Shown: piece after piece, positions 1,414-57,002 of the stretch | Position numbering within the stretch: the stretch's first letter is position 1 | Layout: each line of letters starts with the position of its first letter | DNA from: Mycoplasmatales bacterium | GTDB lineage: Bacteria; Bacillota_I; Bacilli_A; Mycoplasmatales; Metamycoplasmataceae | Assembly (NCBI GenBank): GCA_013215715.1 | Contig: JABSQT010000005.1 | Span: forward strand, 1-57,002 | Direction of reading: 5' to 3' | DNA: 57,002 bases | Made by a program: the position numbers and the translations under genes | The notes under the pieces: model-generated | The model's database searches: none | The model's input: the letters and a program-made list of their open reading frames with translations, nothing else | What the model was told of the DNA's origin: nothing

Positions 1414-2670
1414 ATGAAATTTATAGATGAAGCAGAAATACATGTAAAAGCAGGTAAAGGTGGTAATGGAGTAGTATCTTTCCGTAGGGAAGCACACGTG
1501 TCACGTGGGGGACCAGATGGCGGAGATGGTGGTCTTGGAGGAAGTATTTATTTTGTGGGTGACCCTGGGATGAATACTCTCTTAAACCTAAAATTAAAAA
1601 GAAACATATTTGGTAATGATGGGGAAGATGGGAGAAGGAAAAACCAATATGGAGCTAAAGGGAAAGATATTTTTATTAAAGTACCTTTGGGAACCTTGGT
1701 TATGAATGGAGATAAATTACTTGTTGACATAACCGAACAAAAAGAATACCTAATAGCTGCAGGTGGTAATGGTGGTAAAGGTAATACGAAATTTAAATCT
1801 TCAAGAAATCAAGCACCTAGAATTTCTGAAAACGGAGATAGAGGTGATGAGTTTAGATTAAAACTTATTCTTAAAGTTCTTGCTGATGTTGGTTTTGTTG
1901 GTAAACCTTCAGCAGGTAAGTCAACATTATTATCTAAAGTTACTAATGCTAAACCAAAAACAGCGGCTTACGAATTTACAACGCTTAACCCTCAATTAGG
2001 GTTATCAAAAATTGGAGAAAATTCATTTGTTGTAGCTGACTTACCTGGATTGATTGCAGGGGCAGCACAAGGTAAAGGATTAGGAATTGAATTTCTTAAA
2101 CACATAGAAAGATGTAGATTAATAGCTCACGTTATTGATTTTGGTGATGAAATGAAAAATCCTATTAAGGATTTTGAAGTAATAAATCATGAGCTCAAAG
2201 AATATTCTTTAGGTTTAGAAAAACGTAAACAAGTAGTTATTGCTAATAAAGCTGACTTAAAAGCATTTTCAAAGAATATAGAAAGATTTAAGAAAGCTTA
2301 TCCTAAAATTGAACTCGTTGAAATTTCAGCATTAACCGAAAAAGGTATTGAACCACTTAAACATAAGTTATATGATGCTTATAGAGCTGCGGATGAAATC
2401 GAATATAAGGCTAAGAAATCGGAAGTTACAATTACTTTTGAAGATGATTTTATTGTTGAAAAAGATTATGAGGGTATGTTTGAAATATCTGGTAAAGAGG
2501 TTGAACGCATCTATGATAAAATTCCTTTATCAACAGGGGAAAACTTTATGAGGTTTAATAAAAAATTATCAGCACTTGGAGTTTGAGATGAACTTAGAAA
2601 ACAAGGTGTTAAAGATGGGGATACTGTTAGAATTTTCTCATTTGAATTTGAATGATCAGAAAGAGATTAA
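1414..2670 (+). CDS. obg: GTPase Obg (CgtA)
   Basis: Essential GTPase that works in large ribosomal subunit maturation and stress signalling. The 418-aa product has all three Obg domains: an N-terminal glycine-rich Obg fold (GKGGNG, GGPDGGDGG), a central G domain with P-loop GFVGKPSAGKST and G3 DLPGL, NKAD as G4, and a C-terminal OCT domain that continues through an in-frame TGA (Trp) near 2584 to TAA. Length is normal for the long-form family. It sits on its own leaderless-type promoter and a terminator overlaps its stop codon. Confidence 0.97.
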
Positions 2671-2690
2671 CTTTCTCTTTTTTATTTTGT
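2658..2690 (+). terminator. Intrinsic terminator overlapping the obg stop
   Basis: AGAAAG/CTTTCT stem with a 7-base loop containing the obg TAA, followed by CTTTTTTATTTT. Confidence 0.65.
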
Positions 2691-2694
2691 TTTC

Positions 2695-2717
2695 ATATAA
2701 CCATTTAGTTATATAAT
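2695..2717 (+). promoter_or_regulatory. Promoter of the copper operon with an inverted repeat
   Basis: A perfect inverted repeat ATATAAC-N6-GTTATAT (2695-2714) overlaps the -10 box TATAAT (2712-2717) of the copZ-like/copA operon. A repressor bound there would block RNA polymerase. It does not match the CopY box TACAnnTGTA, and no regulator gene is adjacent; AT-rich chance pairing is possible. Confidence 0.4.
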
Positions 2718-2741
2718 TTAAATGAAAGGGGTGAGGTAGAA

Positions 2742-2939
2742 ATGAAAATAGTTAAATTACATGCGAAATTGCATTGTGGATCTTGTGAAAGTAAAATCAA
2801 AACAATACTAAAGACTAAAGTTGAAGAAGTGCTTGTTAATGTTGCTTCAGGTTTGATAAAAATTAAATACGATGAAACAAAAATAAATATAGAAGAAATA
2901 AAAGGTCTTATTAGCAACCTTGGTTTTAAATTTGATTAA
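2742..2939 (+). CDS. Small heavy-metal-associated (HMA) protein, CopZ-like metallochaperone
   Basis: A 65-aa single-domain protein of the HMA fold, likely carrying Cu(I) to the ATPase downstream. The metal-binding pair is CGSC near residues 12-15, in the loop after the first beta strand; the spacing of the following helix and strands (KIK.., GLIKIKYDE) matches CopZ. Family members usually have M-x-C-x-x-C; here the context is LHCGSC. A strong Shine-Dalgarno (GGGGTGAGG) precedes the ATG. Its stop overlaps the ATG of the ATPase in TAATG, indicating translational coupling. Confidence 0.85.
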   Translation: MKIVKLHAKLHCGSCESKIKTILKTKVEEVLVNVASGLIKIKYDETKINIEEIKGLISNLGFKFD

Positions 2940-4891
2940 TGGATAAGAATAAGTTATTAAAAATAAAAATAATTTTAGTAATTCCATTATTTTTATTGCA
3001 AGTGTATTTTATTATATTAAATATATTAAAACCTCAAGGTCTAATTAAATTAACATGAAATCCAATTATATGAGCTTTATTAACTACGATAATACTTGTT
3101 GTTTATGGTTGGAAATTATTTTTTATATATAAAAACATGTTTAAAAAGATTTTTGATATGGATACATTATTGGGTTTAGCAGCTCATTCATTATTTTTAT
3201 ATTCTATTATTAATTCTTCTATACATTTCAAAGATTCAACATATTCTTATGATGTTTTCTGAGAAGGGACATCATTATTGGTCATTTTTGCTTTTATAGG
3301 GAACACTTTAGAGTCAAGGCTTAGAAATAAGTCGATTGATGGATATAAAGAGCTCTTAAAGCTTAAAACAAAAACTGTTTATTTGGTTAAAAATAAGAAT
3401 GAAGTTAAAACCCCTATCAATGAAGTTAAAATAGGGGATATTATTGCTATTAGGTCAAACTCAAACATTCCATTAGATGGGAAGATAATAGAAGGAGAAA
3501 CTTATTTAGATTATTCTAAAATTACAGGAGAAACAAAAGTGATTCCTAAGGTTATGGGTGATAGTGTAATATCGGGATCAATAAATTTAAAAAATAAAAT
3601 TTTTATAAGGGTAGAAAAGAGTTTTGAAGAGTCTACCTTATCTCTAATAATAGATAAAGCTGAAGATTTATCATTGATTAAACCCAAAATGCAAATTTTA
3701 GCTGATAAACTTTTAAGGGTATTTACTCCAATAATTTTTTCATTTGCATTCTTTGCGTTTATTTTTTGAATAATAATGGGTTATGGCGCTCACATTCAAC
3801 TTAGTTGATTTAAAGGTCATAACTATATAGATAATGCGTTCCTTTCTTCCGTGACCATCTTAGCGATTGCTTGTCCTTGTGCACTTGGTGTAGCAACACC
3901 ATTAGTTGTAACTATTTCTTCTTCAATGGCAAATAAAAATTCTTTATTATTTTCGGAATCTAAATCATTTGAAAAAATTAAAGATGTGAAAATTATTATT
4001 TTCGATAAAACTGGTACATTGACAACGGGTAAAATGAAAGTGGTTAATTATAAAGGTGATAAAAATTCATTAAAGTTAGCAGCAGCAATCGAAAAACACT
4101 CAATACATCCAATAGCAGATGCTATTTCTTCTAAATTTAAAACTGATATAAAAGTAGATAAAGTTAATGAAATAATCGGCGTTGGTATTGAGGCTCAATA
4201 TAAAGGTGAAAAATATTTAATCGCTAAAACCAATAAAAAATCAAGAATTAAAGGTGCTACTATAGTGTCATTAACTTCTTCTTCTAAAACTTTAGCTACA
4301 TTTGAAGTTATGGATGACATAAAACCTAATGCGTCAAAAACCATTCAAGCATTGCAAAAATTAAGAATTAAAACAGTGATGATTACAGGTGATTCATCAG
4401 GAGCTGCAAAGCGTGTTGCAAACATTTTAAATATTGATGAAGTTCATTCAAATGTTTTACCTGAACAAAAAGCTAAACTAGTTACTAAACTGCGTATAAC
4501 AAATAATTTAAGTTCAAAACAACAAATATTATTTATAGGTGATGGATTTAATGATATTCTTGCTTTGAAAACAGCTGATATATCTGTAGCATTTGCTTCA
4601 GGTTCTGACATAACAAACTCACTTTCGGATATTTCTATTCTTAATGATGATTTATATTCATTAATTAATGCAATTAAAATATCTAAATGAAATCAAGTTA
4701 AAATAATCCAATCTTTATCTTGAGCTATGATATTTAATATGCTTGCTCTACCAATGGCATTTATGATGTTTATACCACCTTGAGTAGCTGCGATAATTAT
4801 GTTGTTATCTGATATAGCAGTTGTTGGGAATGCTTTATTTTATAAAATAAGATCAGAAAAATATTTCAAGAAGAAAAAGAAAAAAACATAA
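2939..4891 (+). CDS. copA: Copper-translocating P1B-type ATPase
   Basis: Membrane pump that exports Cu(I) using ATP. The 650-aa product has hydrophobic helices at residues 8-30, 39-60, 75-90 and 98-115. TGE occurs in the actuator domain (KITGETK), followed by the ion-binding CPC motif (about 312-314), phosphorylation site DKTGT (Asp near 356), HP in the nucleotide domain (KHSIHP), GDGFND and two C-terminal helices. It lacks the N-terminal HMA domain most CopA proteins carry; that domain is encoded as the preceding separate gene. The conserved GDGIND is GDGFND here. It overlaps the HMA gene by one base and ends at a strong terminator. Confidence 0.93.
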
Positions 4892-4927
4892 ATTAAAAAC
4901 ATATGCTTTATGCGTGTGTTTTTAATT
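4891..4927 (+). terminator. Intrinsic terminator after copA
   Basis: 11-bp stem AATTAAAAACA/TGTTTTTAATT immediately after the stop codon. Confidence 0.75.
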
Positions 4928-4988
4928 TATTGTTATACACTTGTTTACTTTAAGTAGGAAGAATTCTTAAATGTAGTATTATATTTAT

Positions 4989-5705
4989 ATGAAATATTCA
5001 GAATACTTAATACAATGACTTCGAGAAGAAGTCAAAAAAGCGAACATGGATGGTGTTATAGTTGGTTTATCAGGTGGAGTGGATTCTTCTGTTGTTGCAG
5101 CATTAGCTAAAAAAGCATTTCCAAAAAACTCATTAGGTGTGTATTTACCAATTAATAATATGGGTCAAGATTTAATCGATGCAAAAGAATTAGCTAAAAC
5201 AATCTCTATTGAAACCCAATTAATCGATTTAACTGAATCATATGAAGCTATGAAGAAAGCTATCAAAACAAAAACAAAGTTAGCAACCGCAAACATAAAA
5301 CCAAGATTAAGAATGTCGGCATTATATGCATTAGCACAAGAGAAAAGGTACTTAGTCCTTGGAACAGATAATGCTGCAGAATGAATACTTGGCTATTTCA
5401 CTAAATATGGAGATGGTGGGGTTGATTTACTTCCTATAGTACATTTAACTAAGGGTGAAGTAAAAGAAATGGCAAAAGAGTTAAAATTACCTAGAACTGT
5501 TTGAATTAAAAAACCTACTGCAGCATTATGAGAAGGTCAAACCGATGAAGAAGAGTTGGGATTCTCATATGATGAAGTAGATAAATATTTAAAAGGAGAG
5601 TTCATTGAAGAAAAAATATTAACAAAAATTAAAAGGCAAATTACTAGCACCAATCATAAAAGAGTTCCTTTACCAGAACCCAAATCTCCAAAAGAATATA
5701 AATAA
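4989..5705 (+). CDS. nadE: NH3-dependent NAD+ synthetase
   Basis: Final step of NAD synthesis: ATP-dependent amidation of nicotinate adenine dinucleotide with ammonia. The 238-aa product is a stand-alone synthetase without the glutaminase domain. It has the N-type pyrophosphatase loop SGGVDSS (about 28-34), the GTDNAAEW region that binds ATP/deamido-NAD, and the C-terminal [12 protein letters not shown] typical of bacterial NadE. Two in-frame TGAs encode Trp after 5384. The start is ATG 4989, 19 codons upstream of the next ATG, because the segment matches the family N-terminal helix. NadD and PncA are elsewhere in this window. Confidence 0.95.
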
Positions 5706-48454: not shown

Positions 48455-49266
48455 CTTCTTATTAATTTTAGTATTGCCAATACAACCATAGGAATAACCA
48501 ATATAACAATTAACGAAATTATAAATAATCTTCTATAAGCTTTATTTCTAATTACTTTAATTTCCTCAACTTGAGATTCGGGTGCTAACTCTGTTCCAAA
48601 ATACATATTCATATCATTAATACGTTTCTTTCTTTGTATTGTAAACACAATATGCACAATCGCAATTACTAATAATGCTACAGACATCAATGTTGCTATT
48701 AATGAAGGTTTTCCCATTCAATCGTGGATTCAAATGTCAAACTTAAATATTCATCAACTTGTATCTTTCAATCATCAAAGAATTATTGTTGAAAGACCAC
48801 CATAGAATAACATTGAAAATGTTATTCAATTATGAGCAACTTGTTTCTTATGCATACCAATATACATTTTTGAAATAAATGGTGGTGTAGAAGTCAATCC
48901 AACTTGAATATCTTGGCGATATCTTGTAACAGATTTTTTTAAACTTACAAATTCTAATGTTGATATTGAAAATCTAAATAATGCTAAAAGTCCTGCAATA
49001 GAAGGCGCGGCATATGTTAATGGTCCAAAATCTCACTTTATCGCACCCAGAGTTATAATAATAGACATCGCTATTAGTAATGCACCTGAAAGTATCATTG
49101 TAATTATTTGTCTGAATTTTTCTCATCTAATAACTCCATATATACCATTTGGTATCGCTCCAGTTGGATCTGATACTATTTTTGTAGTTTTTAAATTAGT
49201 TTTTGTAAATGTACTAGTATTTACAAACGTTATTGTATCGTTATTATTTATTGGTCTTAAATCCAT
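48445..49266 (-). CDS. Mollicute membrane protein, MSC_0882-like
   Basis: A 273-aa membrane protein with a hydrophilic N-terminus (about 55 residues) and four to five helices, two pairs around residues 57-95 and 145-205 and one near the C-terminus. It resembles the mycoplasma-specific family known from MSC_0882, from memory and unverified; function unknown. Eight TGA Trp codons hide most of it in the standard code. Its ATG overlaps the stop of the winged-helix gene as TAATG, with GGAGG inside that gene's last codons. Confidence 0.75.
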
Positions 49267-49919
49267 TACATACCTCCTTTCATAATATTTTCTAGTTTTT
49301 CAGTAGGTTTAAAAACAAATCTTTTTCCTTGCTTATCTTTAATAAATAATTCAAGTTCAGTTAATCTCTCTAAAGAACTTCTTGCCGTTTCATATGAACA
49401 TGATACATATTTTATATAATCATCAATCGAATATGATTTTGTTCTCTCATTATAATTTTTAATAAATAATTCATCTTTTTTAGAGAGTTCTGGAATCATC
49501 CTTCTTAAATCTATATCTTTCTCTTTAACAAAGAAACCATCTATTTCATTTATCAACCAATTTGTTACTAATGTAAGATCGTTCCCTTCTTCTTCGAACT
49601 CATTTAAAATATATTTTTTTGTATTTGCAGGAATTTTTATAGGTATTTCTTTTTGCAACACTAATAATTTAGCTATTTCAGTTATATAATCATAATCAAT
49701 AACATCAATGTCTAATTTATTTGATATTTCAACATTTTTTGCATAACGCTTCTTTATTAATTCGGGTGTTTCTACCATTTTTGCAAATACATTTCCAAAA
49801 GAAATAATATTTGTGAATTGTGTTCTATAAGTTTTAACATACATGGAAATGCTAGAGTCCATTTGCTCTAGTTTTTTTATTGGAACATAAATATCATTAG
49901 TAAACTTCCCTTTTTCCAT
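49266..49919 (-). CDS. Protein with a C-terminal winged-helix-like domain, unknown function
   Basis: A 217-aa soluble protein. The last 60 residues look like a winged helix (SIDDYIKYVSCSYETARSSLERLTELELF, then a beta wing), so it may bind DNA. The first part is helical and not recognised; a Fic-like linker is conceivable but the HPFx(D/E)GN motif is absent. ATG 49919 is chosen because TATAAT lies exactly 6 bases upstream; an in-frame GTG at 49934 would lie before the transcription start. It forms an operon with the membrane protein downstream. The promoter adjoins an 11-bp direct-repeat array. Confidence 0.7.
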   Translation of the reverse strand: MEKGKFTNDIYVPIKKLEQMDSSISMYVKTYRTQFTNIISFGNVFAKMVETPELIKKRYAKNVEISNKLDIDVIDYDYITEIAKLLVLQKEIPIKIPANTKKYILNEFEEEGNDLTLVTNWLINEIDGFFVKEKDIDLRRMIPELSKKDELFIKNYNERTKSYSIDDYIKYVSCSYETARSSLERLTELELFIKDKQGKRFVFKPTEKLENIMKGGM

Positions 49920-49925
49920 ATGAAT

Positions 49926-49931
49926 ATTATA
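49926..49931 (-). promoter_or_regulatory. -10 box TATAAT of the winged-helix gene
   Basis: Six bases from ATG 49919; leaderless-type. Confidence 0.55.
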
Positions 49932-49950
49932 CACAAAAAACTATTTTTTT

Positions 49951-50001
49951 ACTAATTTATTACTAATTTATTACTAACTACTAATTTACTACTAATTTAT
50001 T
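49951..50001. repeat. Array of 11-bp direct repeats upstream of the winged-helix gene
   Basis: Four copies of ACTAATTTATT (one with a C change) plus one 7-base partial copy, at 49951, 49962, 49973 (partial), 49980 and 49991. The period is about one turn of the DNA helix. It begins in the -35 region of the promoter at 49926 and its last copies overlap the stop codon of the MFS gene. Confidence 0.8.
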
Positions 50002-51387: not shown

Positions 51388-53181
51388 TTATTTATCATTA
51401 TCCGTTCTAAGAACTTGTAAGAATGCTTCTTGAGGAACTTCTACCGAACCAAATTGTTTAGCTCTTTTCTTACCAGCTTTTTGTTTTTTAAGAAGTTTAT
51501 CTCTACGCGTTCTATCTCCACCATATAACTTTGCCGTAACATCTTTTCTATAAGCTTTAATTGTTTCTCTAGCAATAACTTTTGCACCAATGGCAGCTTG
51601 AACAGGAATCTCAAAGTTATGCTTTGGAATAACATCTTTAAGTCTCTTAGTTAAATCTCTACCTCTATAGTATGCAAAGTCTCTATGACAAATAAATGAG
51701 AAGGCATCAACTCTATCAGCATTAAGCAAAATATCAACTTTTATTAAATCAGATTTTGAATATCCAACAAAGTCATAATCAAATGTTGCATAACCTTTTG
51801 ATATTGATTTTAATTTGTCAAAGAAGTCAAAAATTATTTCAACTAAAGGTAATTTATAAACAACTCTTCTACGTGTGTCATCAATATATTCCAAATCTAA
51901 ATATTCACCACGTTTGTTTTGGCATAGTTCCATAATTCCACCCAAATGAGCTTCCGGAGTTACGATGGTTGCTTTAATAAATGGTTCTTCAATCAAATCA
52001 ATAAATGAAGGATCAGGTAATTTAGTTGGGTTTGAAATAACTTCCATTGTTTTATCTGTTTTGTAAACATGAAATTCAACTGACGGAGCAGTTGCGATTA
52101 GAGGAACATTAAATTCTCTTTCTAATCTTTCTTGAAGAACTTCCATGTGTAACATTCCAAGGAATCCCACACGGAATCCGTGACCAAGAGCTAAGGATGT
52201 TTCAGGTTCAAATGTAATTGATGAATCAGATAAAGAAATCTTTTCTAAAGATTCTTTTAACTGTTCATAGTCTTTTCCGTCAATTGGGTAGAAACCAGTA
52301 AATACAACAGGGTTAAGTTTTTTATATCCTTGTAAAGGTAATTTTGTTGGGTTTTCAGTTAAAGTAATAGTATCTCCAACTGCAACATCTTTCGCATCTC
52401 TGATTGATGCAGCAATTCAACCAACCTCTCCAGCTTCTAATGAAACCTTCTTGACTTCGGCAGGGTTTTTAATACCTAATTCAGTAACATCAAACACTTT
52501 TCCTGATGTCATAAATTTAAATTGATCACCTTTATTAATTTTTCCTTCAAAAATTCTAACAAGAAGAACCACACCACGATATGGATCGAAATATGAATCG
52601 AATACCAATGCTTTAAGTGGTTTTGAATCATCAGCATCTCTAGGTGCTGGAATCACTTCAATTATCTTTTCCAGTACTTTATCAACGTTATGACCTGTTT
52701 TCGCTGAGATTTCAATTGCATCATCAGCAGGTATACCTATAACATCTTCGATTTGTTTTTTAACACCTTCCGGATCAGCGGATGGAAGATCAACTTTATT
52801 AATAACTGGAATAATTTCAAGGTCATTATCCATTGCTAGGTATACATTAGCTAAAGTTTGAGCTTCAATACCTTGTGTAGCATCAACTAACAAAATAGCA
52901 CCTTCACAAGCTGCCAGAGAACGAGAAACTTCATAAGTGAAGTCTACATGCCCTGGAGTATCAATCAAGTGAAAAATGTGGTCTTTATATTCTATTTGAG
53001 CAGCATTTAATTTAATGGTGATACCTCTTTCTTGTTCAAGATCCATTGTATCCATATGTTGAGTATTTAAATCTCTTTTTTGGATTGTATGTGTTTGCTC
53101 TAAAATTCTATCTGCTAATGTTGATTTTCCGTGGTCTATATGTGCAATAATTGCAAAATTTCTTATATTTTTCTTATTCAT
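51388..53181 (-). CDS. lepA: Elongation factor 4 (LepA)
   Basis: A 597-aa ribosome-binding GTPase. The G domain has AHIDHGKST (13-21), DTPGH and NKVD. The rest follows EF-G domains II, III and V, and the unique C-terminal domain ends in [19 protein letters not shown], the LepA signature. It is thought to act in ribosome assembly or back-translocation. TATAAT is 9 bases before ATG 53181. One TGA Trp is read near 52416. Confidence 0.97.
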
Positions 53182-53308: not shown

Positions 53309-53332
53309 ATAAAAAAGCAATAAACGCTTTTT
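53309..53332 (-). terminator. Terminator after fmt
   Basis: Minus strand AAAAAGC/GCTTTTT stem with a 7-base loop, directly after the fmt stop. Confidence 0.65.
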
Positions 53333-54186
53333 TAAAATTTACTACCTTTTAAAAATTCCTTGTAATTTAAAGCACGTTTACCCGGAACTTGTAATTCAGT
53401 TATATATAGTAAACCATCTTTAACTTTATACTCAATACCTTTATCACTATTTGAATAATTTAAAATTTTGATTTTCTTTCCATTCCTTATAATAAATGCA
53501 CCCGGGAATGGATTAAATGCTTTAATCATTCTTTGAGCTTCAAATATAGTTTTTTCTTTATTGATTTCACACTCTTCTTTTGTGATTTTTGGAGAAAATG
53601 TAACATCTTCTTGTGGTTGTGGATATCTTTTAAAAGTTCCTCTTTTTATATTATTTAATCATTCAGTGATGTGATCTGCAGCAATCATAGAAAGAATGCC
53701 AAACATCAACCCTGTTGTATAACTTTCCTCAATAGGTGTTGAAGCTTTAAATATCATATCTCCAGCATCCATTTCTTTAACCATATACATTAGAGTAACC
53801 CCTGTTTCAGCATCACCGTTTAATATAGAATAATGAATAGGTGCCGCACCTCTATACTTCGGTAATAAGGAACCATGTATATTTAATGCTGCTAACTTAG
53901 GTAAATCAAGTATCTTCTGAGGTATGTATTGACCATATGCACATGTCAACATAATATCAAAATCTAATTCTTTTAATTCATCATATATTTCGATAATCTT
54001 TTCAGGTTGAAATATTTTAATTCCATATCTTTTTGCCAATTGTTTAACTGGTGTTTCAATAACCTTGTGACCTCTTCCTTTTGGTCTATCTGGTTGTGTT
54101 ATAATTCCCACTACTTCAAAATGATTAATTACTTCTTCGAATGATCTAACTGAGAATTCTGGTGTTCCTGCTAATAATATTTTCAT
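53332..54186 (-). CDS. fmt: Methionyl-tRNA formyltransferase
   Basis: A 284-aa enzyme that formylates Met-tRNA for initiation using 10-formyl-THF. The N-terminal domain has GTPEFS, the catalytic Asn-His in NIHGSLLPKYRGAAP and Asp in MDAGDM. The short C-terminal OB domain is present (FNPFPGAF..KI.I). Slightly shorter than the 310-aa norm, as in other small genomes. TATAAT lies exactly 6 bases before the ATG without a Shine-Dalgarno. Confidence 0.95.
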
Positions 54187-54273: not shown

Positions 54274-55782
54274 TTAATATAAATTTGACACTGAAGTATT
54301 TACATGAACTTCATAAGAATTCATAAGTTTTTTAGCCTCTGCATTAATTCCATCAATGGTAATTGATTTTAAATCAACTTTAATTCCCTTAATTTCTTTT
54401 ATAGCTTTTTTTCACGCTTCTTTAAATTTATTAATTGTATCGATACTATATGCATTTGCTTTAATTTGTATTGATATTTTTTCTAGTGCTTTTAACTTTG
54501 TATTTAAATCATTGATTGCTTTTGTATTTGCATCTAATTTATCTTGTGCAGTTTTTGTTGCTATTTTAGCATTTTCAAGGTTTTTTATAGCTCTTTTGTT
54601 AGCTTCATTTAAATCATTGATTGCTTTTGTATTTGCATCTAATTTATCTTGCGCAGTTTTTAATTCAGCATTTATTTTATCTAAGTCTTTTTGCGCATTT
54701 TTTACAGAAGCATTATTTTTAATTGCATCTCTATTTTTGATAGCTTCATTAAGTTTTTTTTGAGCTTCTTTTATAGTTTTGATTTCATTAGGTAATTTAT
54801 CACTAATTGTTTTTTTAATTTTTGCTTCTTCTTTCTCTCAATAATCTAATAAATCTTGATGTTCATCTCTACGTTTTTTTAATGCTGCAATTGATGCTTT
54901 TGTTTTGATCATTGATTTTTCTCAGTCTGCATCTCACTCTAATTGTTTTTTAGCGAATTTTTGTTGTTTTTGAGCATCTGCTAAATTTGTCAAAATATGT
55001 GATGCTATTTTAGCTTTTTTTGCAGTTTCAAATTTTGCTTTTGCATTATTCAAATTTTCTTGAGCATTAGAAACTTTTTTTCTTGCTTGTTTAAATTCTT
55101 TTTTATTTGCCTTAAGTAGTGCTTCTAATTTTGCTTTTGCAGTTTTTAAATCTTGTACTCTATTGACTAACACTATTGTTTTTGCAACTTCCGTATCTAA
55201 TTTATTTTGTGCATCTTTGACAGCTTTTTCAACTAATATTTGTGCAGCTTTAGTATTATTAGAAATTTTAACCAATCCTGCTGTTTTAGCTTTTTCATCA
55301 TTTAGCATTTTTATTGCTTTATCTAAATCAGTTTTTGCTGTTGACTCTATTGTTTTTGAGTCTGAAAGTTTTGTTTCTAAATCTACTGTTTTCGCAGATT
55401 CTTCATCTAGTTTAACTTGTATTTCTTTTTTAATTTCTTTAATAAAATCTTCAATAATTTTTTTAACCTCATCCACTTTAACGTTTTCTTGTTTTTTGAA
55501 TTTTGTGGTTAAATTAATTTTTTTATTAATATTGATAGATTTAAGATTTTCATTAATCTTTCTTTCTAAATTATTAATTCCTTCATTATCAATGGCATCA
55601 AAATCAGGGCGTGTAATTCCACCAAAGTTTTGTATGGTAGTTTTAGCACTTTCATTTATACCAATTCCATTATTATTTCCATCTTGGGTTGTTCTTAATG
55701 CTAAGACCGTTCCAGCCCCAATGATTCCTGATGATAATAAAGTTATCACCCCTAGTGTTCCAGCTTTTATTTTTTTGTTCAT
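54274..55782 (-). CDS. Coiled-coil surface protein with 35-residue repeats
   Basis: A 502-aa secreted or membrane-anchored protein. The N-terminus (MNKKIKAGTLGVITLLSSG) is a signal or anchor helix without a lipobox Cys. Most of the rest is a long Ala/Lys/Asp coiled coil. TAQDKLDANTKAINDLN occurs twice, 105 bases (35 residues, five heptads) apart. The C-terminal 60 residues contain TINKFKEAW, shared with the neighbour at the right edge. AGGAG stands 5 bases before ATG 55782, chosen over an ATG five codons earlier. Function unknown; the form recalls adhesins or cytoskeletal tip proteins. Confidence 0.83.
54502..54660. repeat. 105-bp-spaced direct repeat inside the coiled-coil gene
   Basis: A segment of about 54 bases from 54502 recurs from 54607 with one or two differences. 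It keeps the frame and encodes the 17-residue block TAQDKLDANTKAINDLN twice. Confidence 0.8.
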
Positions 55783-55797
55783 ATTTTCTCCTAACAT

Positions 55798-56138: not shown

Positions 56139-57002
56139 TTAGTATATTTTTTCAAATGATAATTGCAATGATTGTTTAACTATCCCTTCATCAAAAATTA
56201 TTTTAGCTTCTTCATAAATCTCTTTTATTGTTTTAGTATTTTTTAATTGAATAGAATGTTTATATTTTTTAGAAAGTAAATTTTCTCATGCTTCTTTAAA
56301 TTTCTGGATAGTTTTGTCTGAATGAATATTGGATTTAACAATAACTTTTTGAACTTGTCCACCATCTTTAATTAATTCTTTTGTTGAAAGAATCTCATCA
56401 ACAGTTGTCATTAATTTACCATTTAAATTTCTAAGTTTTATTTTTTTAATTGCAGCAGCATCTAAATTAAGTATATTTCGAGCTATTTGAACCGCTTGGT
56501 CAGCGTTAATTTTTGTAGTATTAGCATCAATTAATGCTTGATCTGCTTTTGATTTTGTTGTTTCTTTAGTCTTAATATCATTCGCATTATCAATAACTGC
56601 TTGGTCAGCTTTAGATTTTGTAGTATTAGCATCAATTAATGCTTGATCTGCTTTTGATTTTGTTGTTTCTTTAGTCTTAATATCATTTGCATTATCAATA
56701 ACCGCTTGGTCAGAGTTAGATTTTGTAGTATTAGCATCAATTAATGCTTGATCTGCTTTTGATTTTGTTGTTTCTTTAGTCTTAATATCATTTGCATTAT
56801 CAATAACCGCTTGGTCAGAGTTAGATTTTGTAGTATTAGCATCAATTAATGCTTGATCTGCTTTTGATTTTGTTGTTTCTTTAGTCTTAATATCATTTGC
56901 ATTATCAATAACCGCTTGGTCAGAGTTAGATTTTGTAGTATTAGCATCAATTAATGCTTGATCTGCTTTTGATTTTGTTGTTTCTTTAGTCTTAATATCA
57001 TT
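56139..57002 (-). CDS. Repeat-rich surface protein, C-terminal part (continues past the right edge)
   Basis: The last 287 codons of a larger protein. From the window edge it consists of nearly identical 35-residue units (DQAVIDNANDIKTKETTKS..DQALIDANTTKS), giving a regular heptad coiled coil, then a unique 120-residue end. The end contains TIQKFKEAW and aligns with the end of the neighbouring coiled-coil protein. TAA is at 56139-56141. Because the unit is repeated at DNA level, length variation between strains is expected. Its N-terminus, signal and total repeat number are outside the window. Confidence 0.85.
56492..57002 (-). repeat. Tandem array of 105-bp units
   Basis: Units recur at exactly 105-base spacing (same base at 56492, 56597, 56702, 56807, 56912). 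The three units nearest the edge look identical; the first two differ by a few bases. The array runs off the window. It lies in frame within the surface protein gene. Confidence 0.92.

What the first reader, a model, noticed from the sequence alone, without database searches (positions are those of the whole stretch)
56492..57002. Near-identical 105-bp (35-residue, five-heptad) tandem units in a surface protein at the right edge
Five units are visible at strict 105-base spacing and the three outermost look identical, which points to recent expansion by recombination or slippage. Each unit is itself built of two DQA-x-ID half-units. A 35-residue period equals five heptads, so adding or removing a unit keeps the coiled coil in register and changes only its length. 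This could be a size-variable adhesin or ruler-like stalk.
Basis: partly seen in the sequence, partly recalled or inferred. Interest (0 to 1): 0.66.

Follow-up and report, generated by a model that had tools for sequence, protein, structure and literature searches.

The report
Repeat-built helical surface stalk, mycoplasma
A marine mycoplasma gene carries at least five nearly identical 35-amino-acid units at the broken end of an assembly contig; it belongs to a small, unnamed family of probably membrane-anchored rod-like proteins, found so far in two related species, that are built from 35-residue units, so the stalk can plausibly change length by gaining or losing units.

Summary
The repeat is real: 4.9 units of 105 bp at 56490-57002 on the minus strand, the outer three identical, all in one open frame (code 4). 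The contig ends inside the array, so the 5' half of the gene and the true unit number are unknown. Gene A and its neighbour, gene C (54274-55797), belong to a family unnamed in Pfam or NCBIfam, found in 2 of 320 genomes of the order: the window's species and Mycoplasma todarodis. Members have a hydrophobic N-terminus without lipobox cysteine, an N-domain, long helical arms and a ~72-residue C-domain. The 35-residue period is the family's building rule: lag 35 is the strongest self-similarity even in most members or regions without recent DNA repeats. One complete M. todarodis paralog carries two ~7-unit arrays, one on each side of its centre. AlphaFold models suggest an intramolecular helical hairpin with equal arms, at low to medium confidence. 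The heptad signal in the window's own array is weak. Best reading: a surface stalk whose length follows unit number, comparable in kind to M. hominis Lmp/Vmp, Vsa and streptococcal antigen I/II. Size variation, surface location and adhesion were not shown.

The parts
56478..57002 (-). Array of five 105-bp (35-residue) units of gene A, cut by the contig end; outer three units identical
56139..57002 (-). Gene A, 5'-truncated: 287 residues of the C-terminal part (array, linker, C-domain ending ...FEKIY, stop)
   Evidence: ortholog-like C-terminal part in M. todarodis L009/L091:3-773, 42% identical
56142..56357 (-). C-terminal domain of gene A (about 72 residues), shared with gene C and M. todarodis paralogs
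   Evidence: profile A1/A3: E 2.4e-27 and 9e-27; A1/A3 were built with this sequence, so these E-values are not independent; the search with P0001 alone finds the paralogs
54274..55797 (-). Gene C, complete paralog (507 residues): hydrophobic N-terminus without lipobox Cys, N-domain, two helical arms, C-domain
   Evidence: internal 35-residue period z = 4.4
55387..55782 (-). N-terminal anchor plus N-domain of gene C (the homologous part of gene A lies beyond the contig end)
   Evidence: profile A2 includes this sequence
53332..54186 (-). Neighbour: methionyl-tRNA formyltransferase-like gene (fmt), followed by lepA at 51388-53181; same order next to gene C in M. todarodis (L011)
   Evidence: names of fmt and lepA from reading the sequences, no family search run on them

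Best explanation
Gene A encodes a member of a lineage-restricted family of long helical stalk proteins on the mycoplasma surface. SHOWN: the array; the truncated gene; the paralogous neighbour; a shared C-domain; a 35-residue period across the family; a second, equally long array on the N-side of a complete paralog. INFERRED: a signal anchor or signal peptide at the N-terminus places the protein outside the membrane. The chain runs out along an N-arm, turns at a tip and returns along a C-arm, so that N-domain and C-domain meet near the membrane. Because both arms are made of units of five heptads, a unit can be added or lost without breaking the frame or the helical phase, which changes stalk length, tip height and perhaps shielding or adhesion. 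In-frame recombination or slippage between identical units changes the number. If the arms pair with each other, they must stay roughly matched in length.
For: Array and identity of units. Contig end inside the array, and six contig ends of M. todarodis inside arrays of this family. Paralogs with N-domain and C-domain. Lag 35 is the top of 85 lags in gene C (z 4.4), paralogs E (3.9) and F (4.3), and the centre of B outside its arrays (3.5). B has self-similar arrays at residues 116-393 and 939-1220, i.e. 278 and 282 residues, 6.7 and 6.9 DNA copies. AlphaFold of gene C: helix 108-266, turn 267-272, helices 273-360 and 363-447, with higher confidence in mirror-image stretches near the base. This model resembles the joined antiparallel Smc coiled-coil segment 5xg2 (TM 0.63 by target, probability 0.82, but E 2.4). 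AlphaFold of B: outer helical arms of 372 and 372 residues around a 349-residue central part.
Against: The structural models are of low to medium confidence (mean pLDDT 65 and 60, pTM 0.40 and 0.30); no coordinates or contact errors were available, and no PDB match is significant. In the B model the N-array appears partly folded on itself near fragment residue 72-75, so direct pairing of N-array with C-array is not shown. A helix-breaker test for a central turn was inconclusive. The centre of paralog D shows no 35-residue signal (z 0.5). The heptad signal of the window's own array is weak. No isolates were available, so unit-number variation is not shown.
Confidence: 0.55

Rival explanations
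1. A parallel dimeric coiled-coil fibre of the streptococcal M-protein type: two chains run side by side, no turn back; repeats only lengthen the fibre.
For: Five-heptad units also fit a parallel dimer; N-side arrays have clean 3.5 periodicity; surface fibres of this type are well known (own knowledge).
Against: Conserved domains at both ends of each chain, equal arrays on both sides of the centre of B, and a predicted turn at the middle of gene C fit a hairpin better.
Confidence: 0.25
2. The repeats are a by-product of slippage in an Ala/Lys/Asp-rich helical or partly disordered segment with no length function; the protein is a generic antigenic decoy.
For: Weak hydrophobic core in the window's array; fast, species-specific homogenisation of arrays.
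Against: The same 35-residue period is kept in diverged paralogs without recent repeats, which argues for structural constraint on the period.
Confidence: 0.15
3. The near-identical copies are an assembly artefact (one or two units extended at a contig end).
For: The contig ends within three identical copies; short-read assemblies misjudge such arrays.
Against: Unit 4 and unit 5 differ and are internal; M. todarodis has independent arrays of the same period, including diverged ones that cannot be artefacts. Only the number of identical units is doubtful.
Confidence: 0.05

Closest known systems
Mycoplasma hominis Lmp and Vmp proteins (PMC524362)
   Same: Mycoplasma proteins with signal sequence, coiled coil through nearly the whole length, a non-coiled C-terminal region, clustered paralogs, and (Lmp) size variation by intragenic repeats
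   Different: Lmp repeats are about 500 bp, not 105 bp; the family profiles found no relative in the other genomes of the order at E <= 1e-4 apart from one weak hit to an unlike lipoprotein
Mycoplasma hominis Vaa (PMC524362)
   Same: Rod-shaped monomeric surface adhesin with a variable number of coiled-coil cassettes
   Different: Cassettes of about 110 residues, diverged and exchangeable; single-copy gene
Mycoplasma pulmonis Vsa (PMC6080569)
   Same: Surface protein with up to 60 tandem units whose number affects shielding
   Different: Lipoprotein, units of 10-19 residues, one gene expressed at a time; here no lipobox cysteine was seen in the paralogs and no switching locus was looked for
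Streptococcal antigen I/II (PMC7732690)
   Same: In principle the design proposed here: two separate repeat regions of one chain intertwine into a stalk that lifts the central part away from the cell, with N- and C-terminal domains interacting
   Different: There an alanine-rich A-region pairs with a proline-rich P-region and the protein is wall-anchored; here both arms are predicted helical and the cell has no wall
SMC/Rad50-type antiparallel coiled coils
   Same: Predicted hairpin with equal arms (weak structural matches)
   Different: No ATPase head domains; probably exported or membrane-anchored

Membership tests
Window family (gene A, gene C, M. todarodis paralogs) | C-terminal domain of about 72 residues ending in a Tyr | tested here: met
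Window family (gene A, gene C, M. todarodis paralogs) | Hydrophobic N-terminus plus N-domain | tested here: inconclusive
   Met for gene C and six M. todarodis proteins; for gene A it lies beyond the contig end
Window family (gene A, gene C, M. todarodis paralogs) | 35-residue internal period | tested here: met
M. hominis Lmp/Vmp | Sequence homology to Lmp/Vmp | not tested
   No Lmp/Vmp sequence was compared by name.
M. hominis Lmp/Vmp | Repeat unit of about 500 bp | tested here: not met
   Unit is 105 bp
Lipoprotein variable antigens (Vsa type) | Lipobox cysteine at the N-terminus | tested here: inconclusive
   Absent in gene C and the M. todarodis paralogs, but gene A's own N-terminus is not available
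Streptococcal M protein | Wall-anchor motif and parallel dimeric coiled coil | not testable with these tools
   The C-terminus is a conserved domain ending in Tyr, with no wall-anchor motif visible in the sequence; oligomeric state cannot be computed here
Known Pfam, NCBIfam or PDB families | Match above curated threshold or significant E-value | tested here: not met

The most novel reading that the evidence does not exclude
The family is a self-paired helical stalk in which two separate tandem arrays of one gene, one on each arm of a hairpin, must expand and contract together, so that unit numbers in the two arrays are co-adjusted. This would be an all-helical counterpart of antigen I/II whose height is set by DNA repeat number.
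Probability: 0.25. Interest if true: 0.62.

Novelty: new variant of a known kind. Interest (0 to 1): 0.4.

Why it matters
Size-variable repeat proteins are common on mycoplasmas, but a family that keeps a five-heptad module throughout, and where a complete member has equal arrays on both sides of the centre, would make a clear test of whether repeat number sets the height of a surface stalk, and whether two arrays in one gene are kept matched. It also explains why assemblies of these invertebrate-associated mycoplasmas break at these genes.

Tried and rejected
Search for the missing 5' half of gene A in the same genome: only gene C's N-terminus is found. Search of the family, then the order, for relatives: only M. 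todarodis and the window's genome; weak hits elsewhere looked like chance or signal-peptide similarity, for example G091, a lipoprotein. Pfam hits below threshold (UBA_HYPK, FlgN, DUF29, MA-Mit and others) were rejected as coiled-coil or chance matches. A simple helix-breaker test for a turn at mid-chain gave no clear answer and is not used as evidence. The idea that all arrays are equally good heptad coils was rejected: the C-side arrays of genes A and B have a weak core.

Full report
WHAT IS THERE. The array is present as described. Tandem Repeats Finder reports 56490-57002, period 105, 4.9 copies, 98% matches, no indels. On the coding minus strand the three units nearest the edge are identical over 315 bases, the fourth differs at 4 positions, the fifth at 13, all in its last third. 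The frame is open under code 4, with a TGA read as Trp beyond the array. The half-units DQALID and DQAVID are 14 and 21 residues apart, so a unit is 2 + 3 heptads. The window edge is the end of contig C5 (57002 bases) of a 953,490-base, 9-contig assembly. The 5' half of the gene is not on any readable contig end and no second N-terminus of the family was found in the assembly; contig C9 is withheld. The count of five is therefore a lower bound.

WHERE IT COMES FROM. The sister genome G002 is Mycoplasma todarodis strain 5H: its contig NZ_PSZP01000038.1 has the same length, 5962 bases, and the same match position as G002:C73. The window's genome is in the same genus; Mycoplasma marinum is likely, but that is inference (the two species were described together, from an octopus and a squid, PMC9753696).

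THE FAMILY. Gene A's neighbour, gene C (54274-55797), is a complete 507-residue paralog. In M. todarodis the counterpart of gene A, an extra 1321-residue paralog B and the start of gene C lie on one contig, and the end of gene C lies next to fmt and lepA on another; further paralogs D, E and F lie elsewhere. All members whose N-terminus is known share a hydrophobic N-terminus without lipobox cysteine and an N-domain. A C-domain of about 72 residues was aligned for A, B, C, D and E; in F the C-terminal match is marginal (E 4.3e-5 with profile A1; not listed with A3). Profiles of the N- and C-domain find the family only in these two genomes among 320 of the order; the third genome of the genus gave no match. 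Pfam, NCBIfam and PDB sequences give nothing.

THE 35-RESIDUE RULE. Gene A, B, D and the M. todarodis counterpart of A carry DNA-level 105-bp arrays of unlike sequence. Self-similarity at lag 35 is also the strongest of 85 lags in gene C, E and F and in the centre of B outside its arrays (z 3.5-4.4); the centre of D gave no signal (z 0.5). So the period is an old property of the family, and the identical units are its latest round of expansion. Gene C shows the same thing between species: two nearly identical 35-residue units at the M. todarodis contig end (23 of 24 residues), diverged ones in the window. Six contig ends of the M. todarodis assembly fall in such arrays.

SHAPE. B has one array on each side of its centre, 278 and 282 residues long. 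AlphaFold of gene C gives a helix 108-266, a turn, and helices 273-447; weak PDB matches include joined antiparallel Smc segments. AlphaFold of B residues 122-1321 gives outer helical arms of 372 and 372 residues, and local matches to colicin helical hairpins. These agree with an intramolecular hairpin stalk. The window's own array has a weak hydrophobic core; the N-side arrays of paralogs are clean heptad coils.

HOW IT MOST LIKELY WORKS. The N-terminus anchors or exports the chain, the arms form a stalk, units of five heptads can be gained or lost in frame and in helical phase, and stalk length changes. What the tip or the end domains bind is unknown; shielding or adhesion is inferred from Vsa, Vaa and Lmp (PMC6080569, PMC524362). 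In layout the proposal resembles streptococcal antigen I/II (PMC7732690), but membership in any of these families is not claimed.

VERDICT. Size variation, exposure and ruler function remain untested.

Noticed in passing
L070 (M. todarodis G002:C84) 1556-5019: The M. todarodis counterpart of gene A seems to change frame between 4118 and 4147, with stops between the two open parts. It may be an assembly error, a broken gene or an off state.
   Followed up: partly
L070 2-1285: Upstream gene encodes the end of a protein that looks repetitive (units of roughly 115 residues by eye) with a C-terminal hydrophobic segment; another possible surface protein.
   Followed up: no
G002 contigs C84 end, C73 both ends, C58 end, C52 end, C41 start: Six contig ends of the M. 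todarodis assembly fall inside arrays of this gene family, so collapsed unit numbers are likely there too.
   Followed up: partly
G000:C9: A 1578-base contig of the window's genome is fully masked and could not be checked for the missing half of gene A.
   Followed up: no
window 49940-50001: Short A/T-rich 11-bp tandem repeat directly upstream of the minus-strand gene at 49266-49934; possible promoter-region repeat.
   Followed up: no
L073 3392-6583 (M. todarodis C35): Divergent paralog F lies next to lipoprotein-like genes, away from the fmt locus, and keeps the 35-residue period without DNA repeats.
   Followed up: partly
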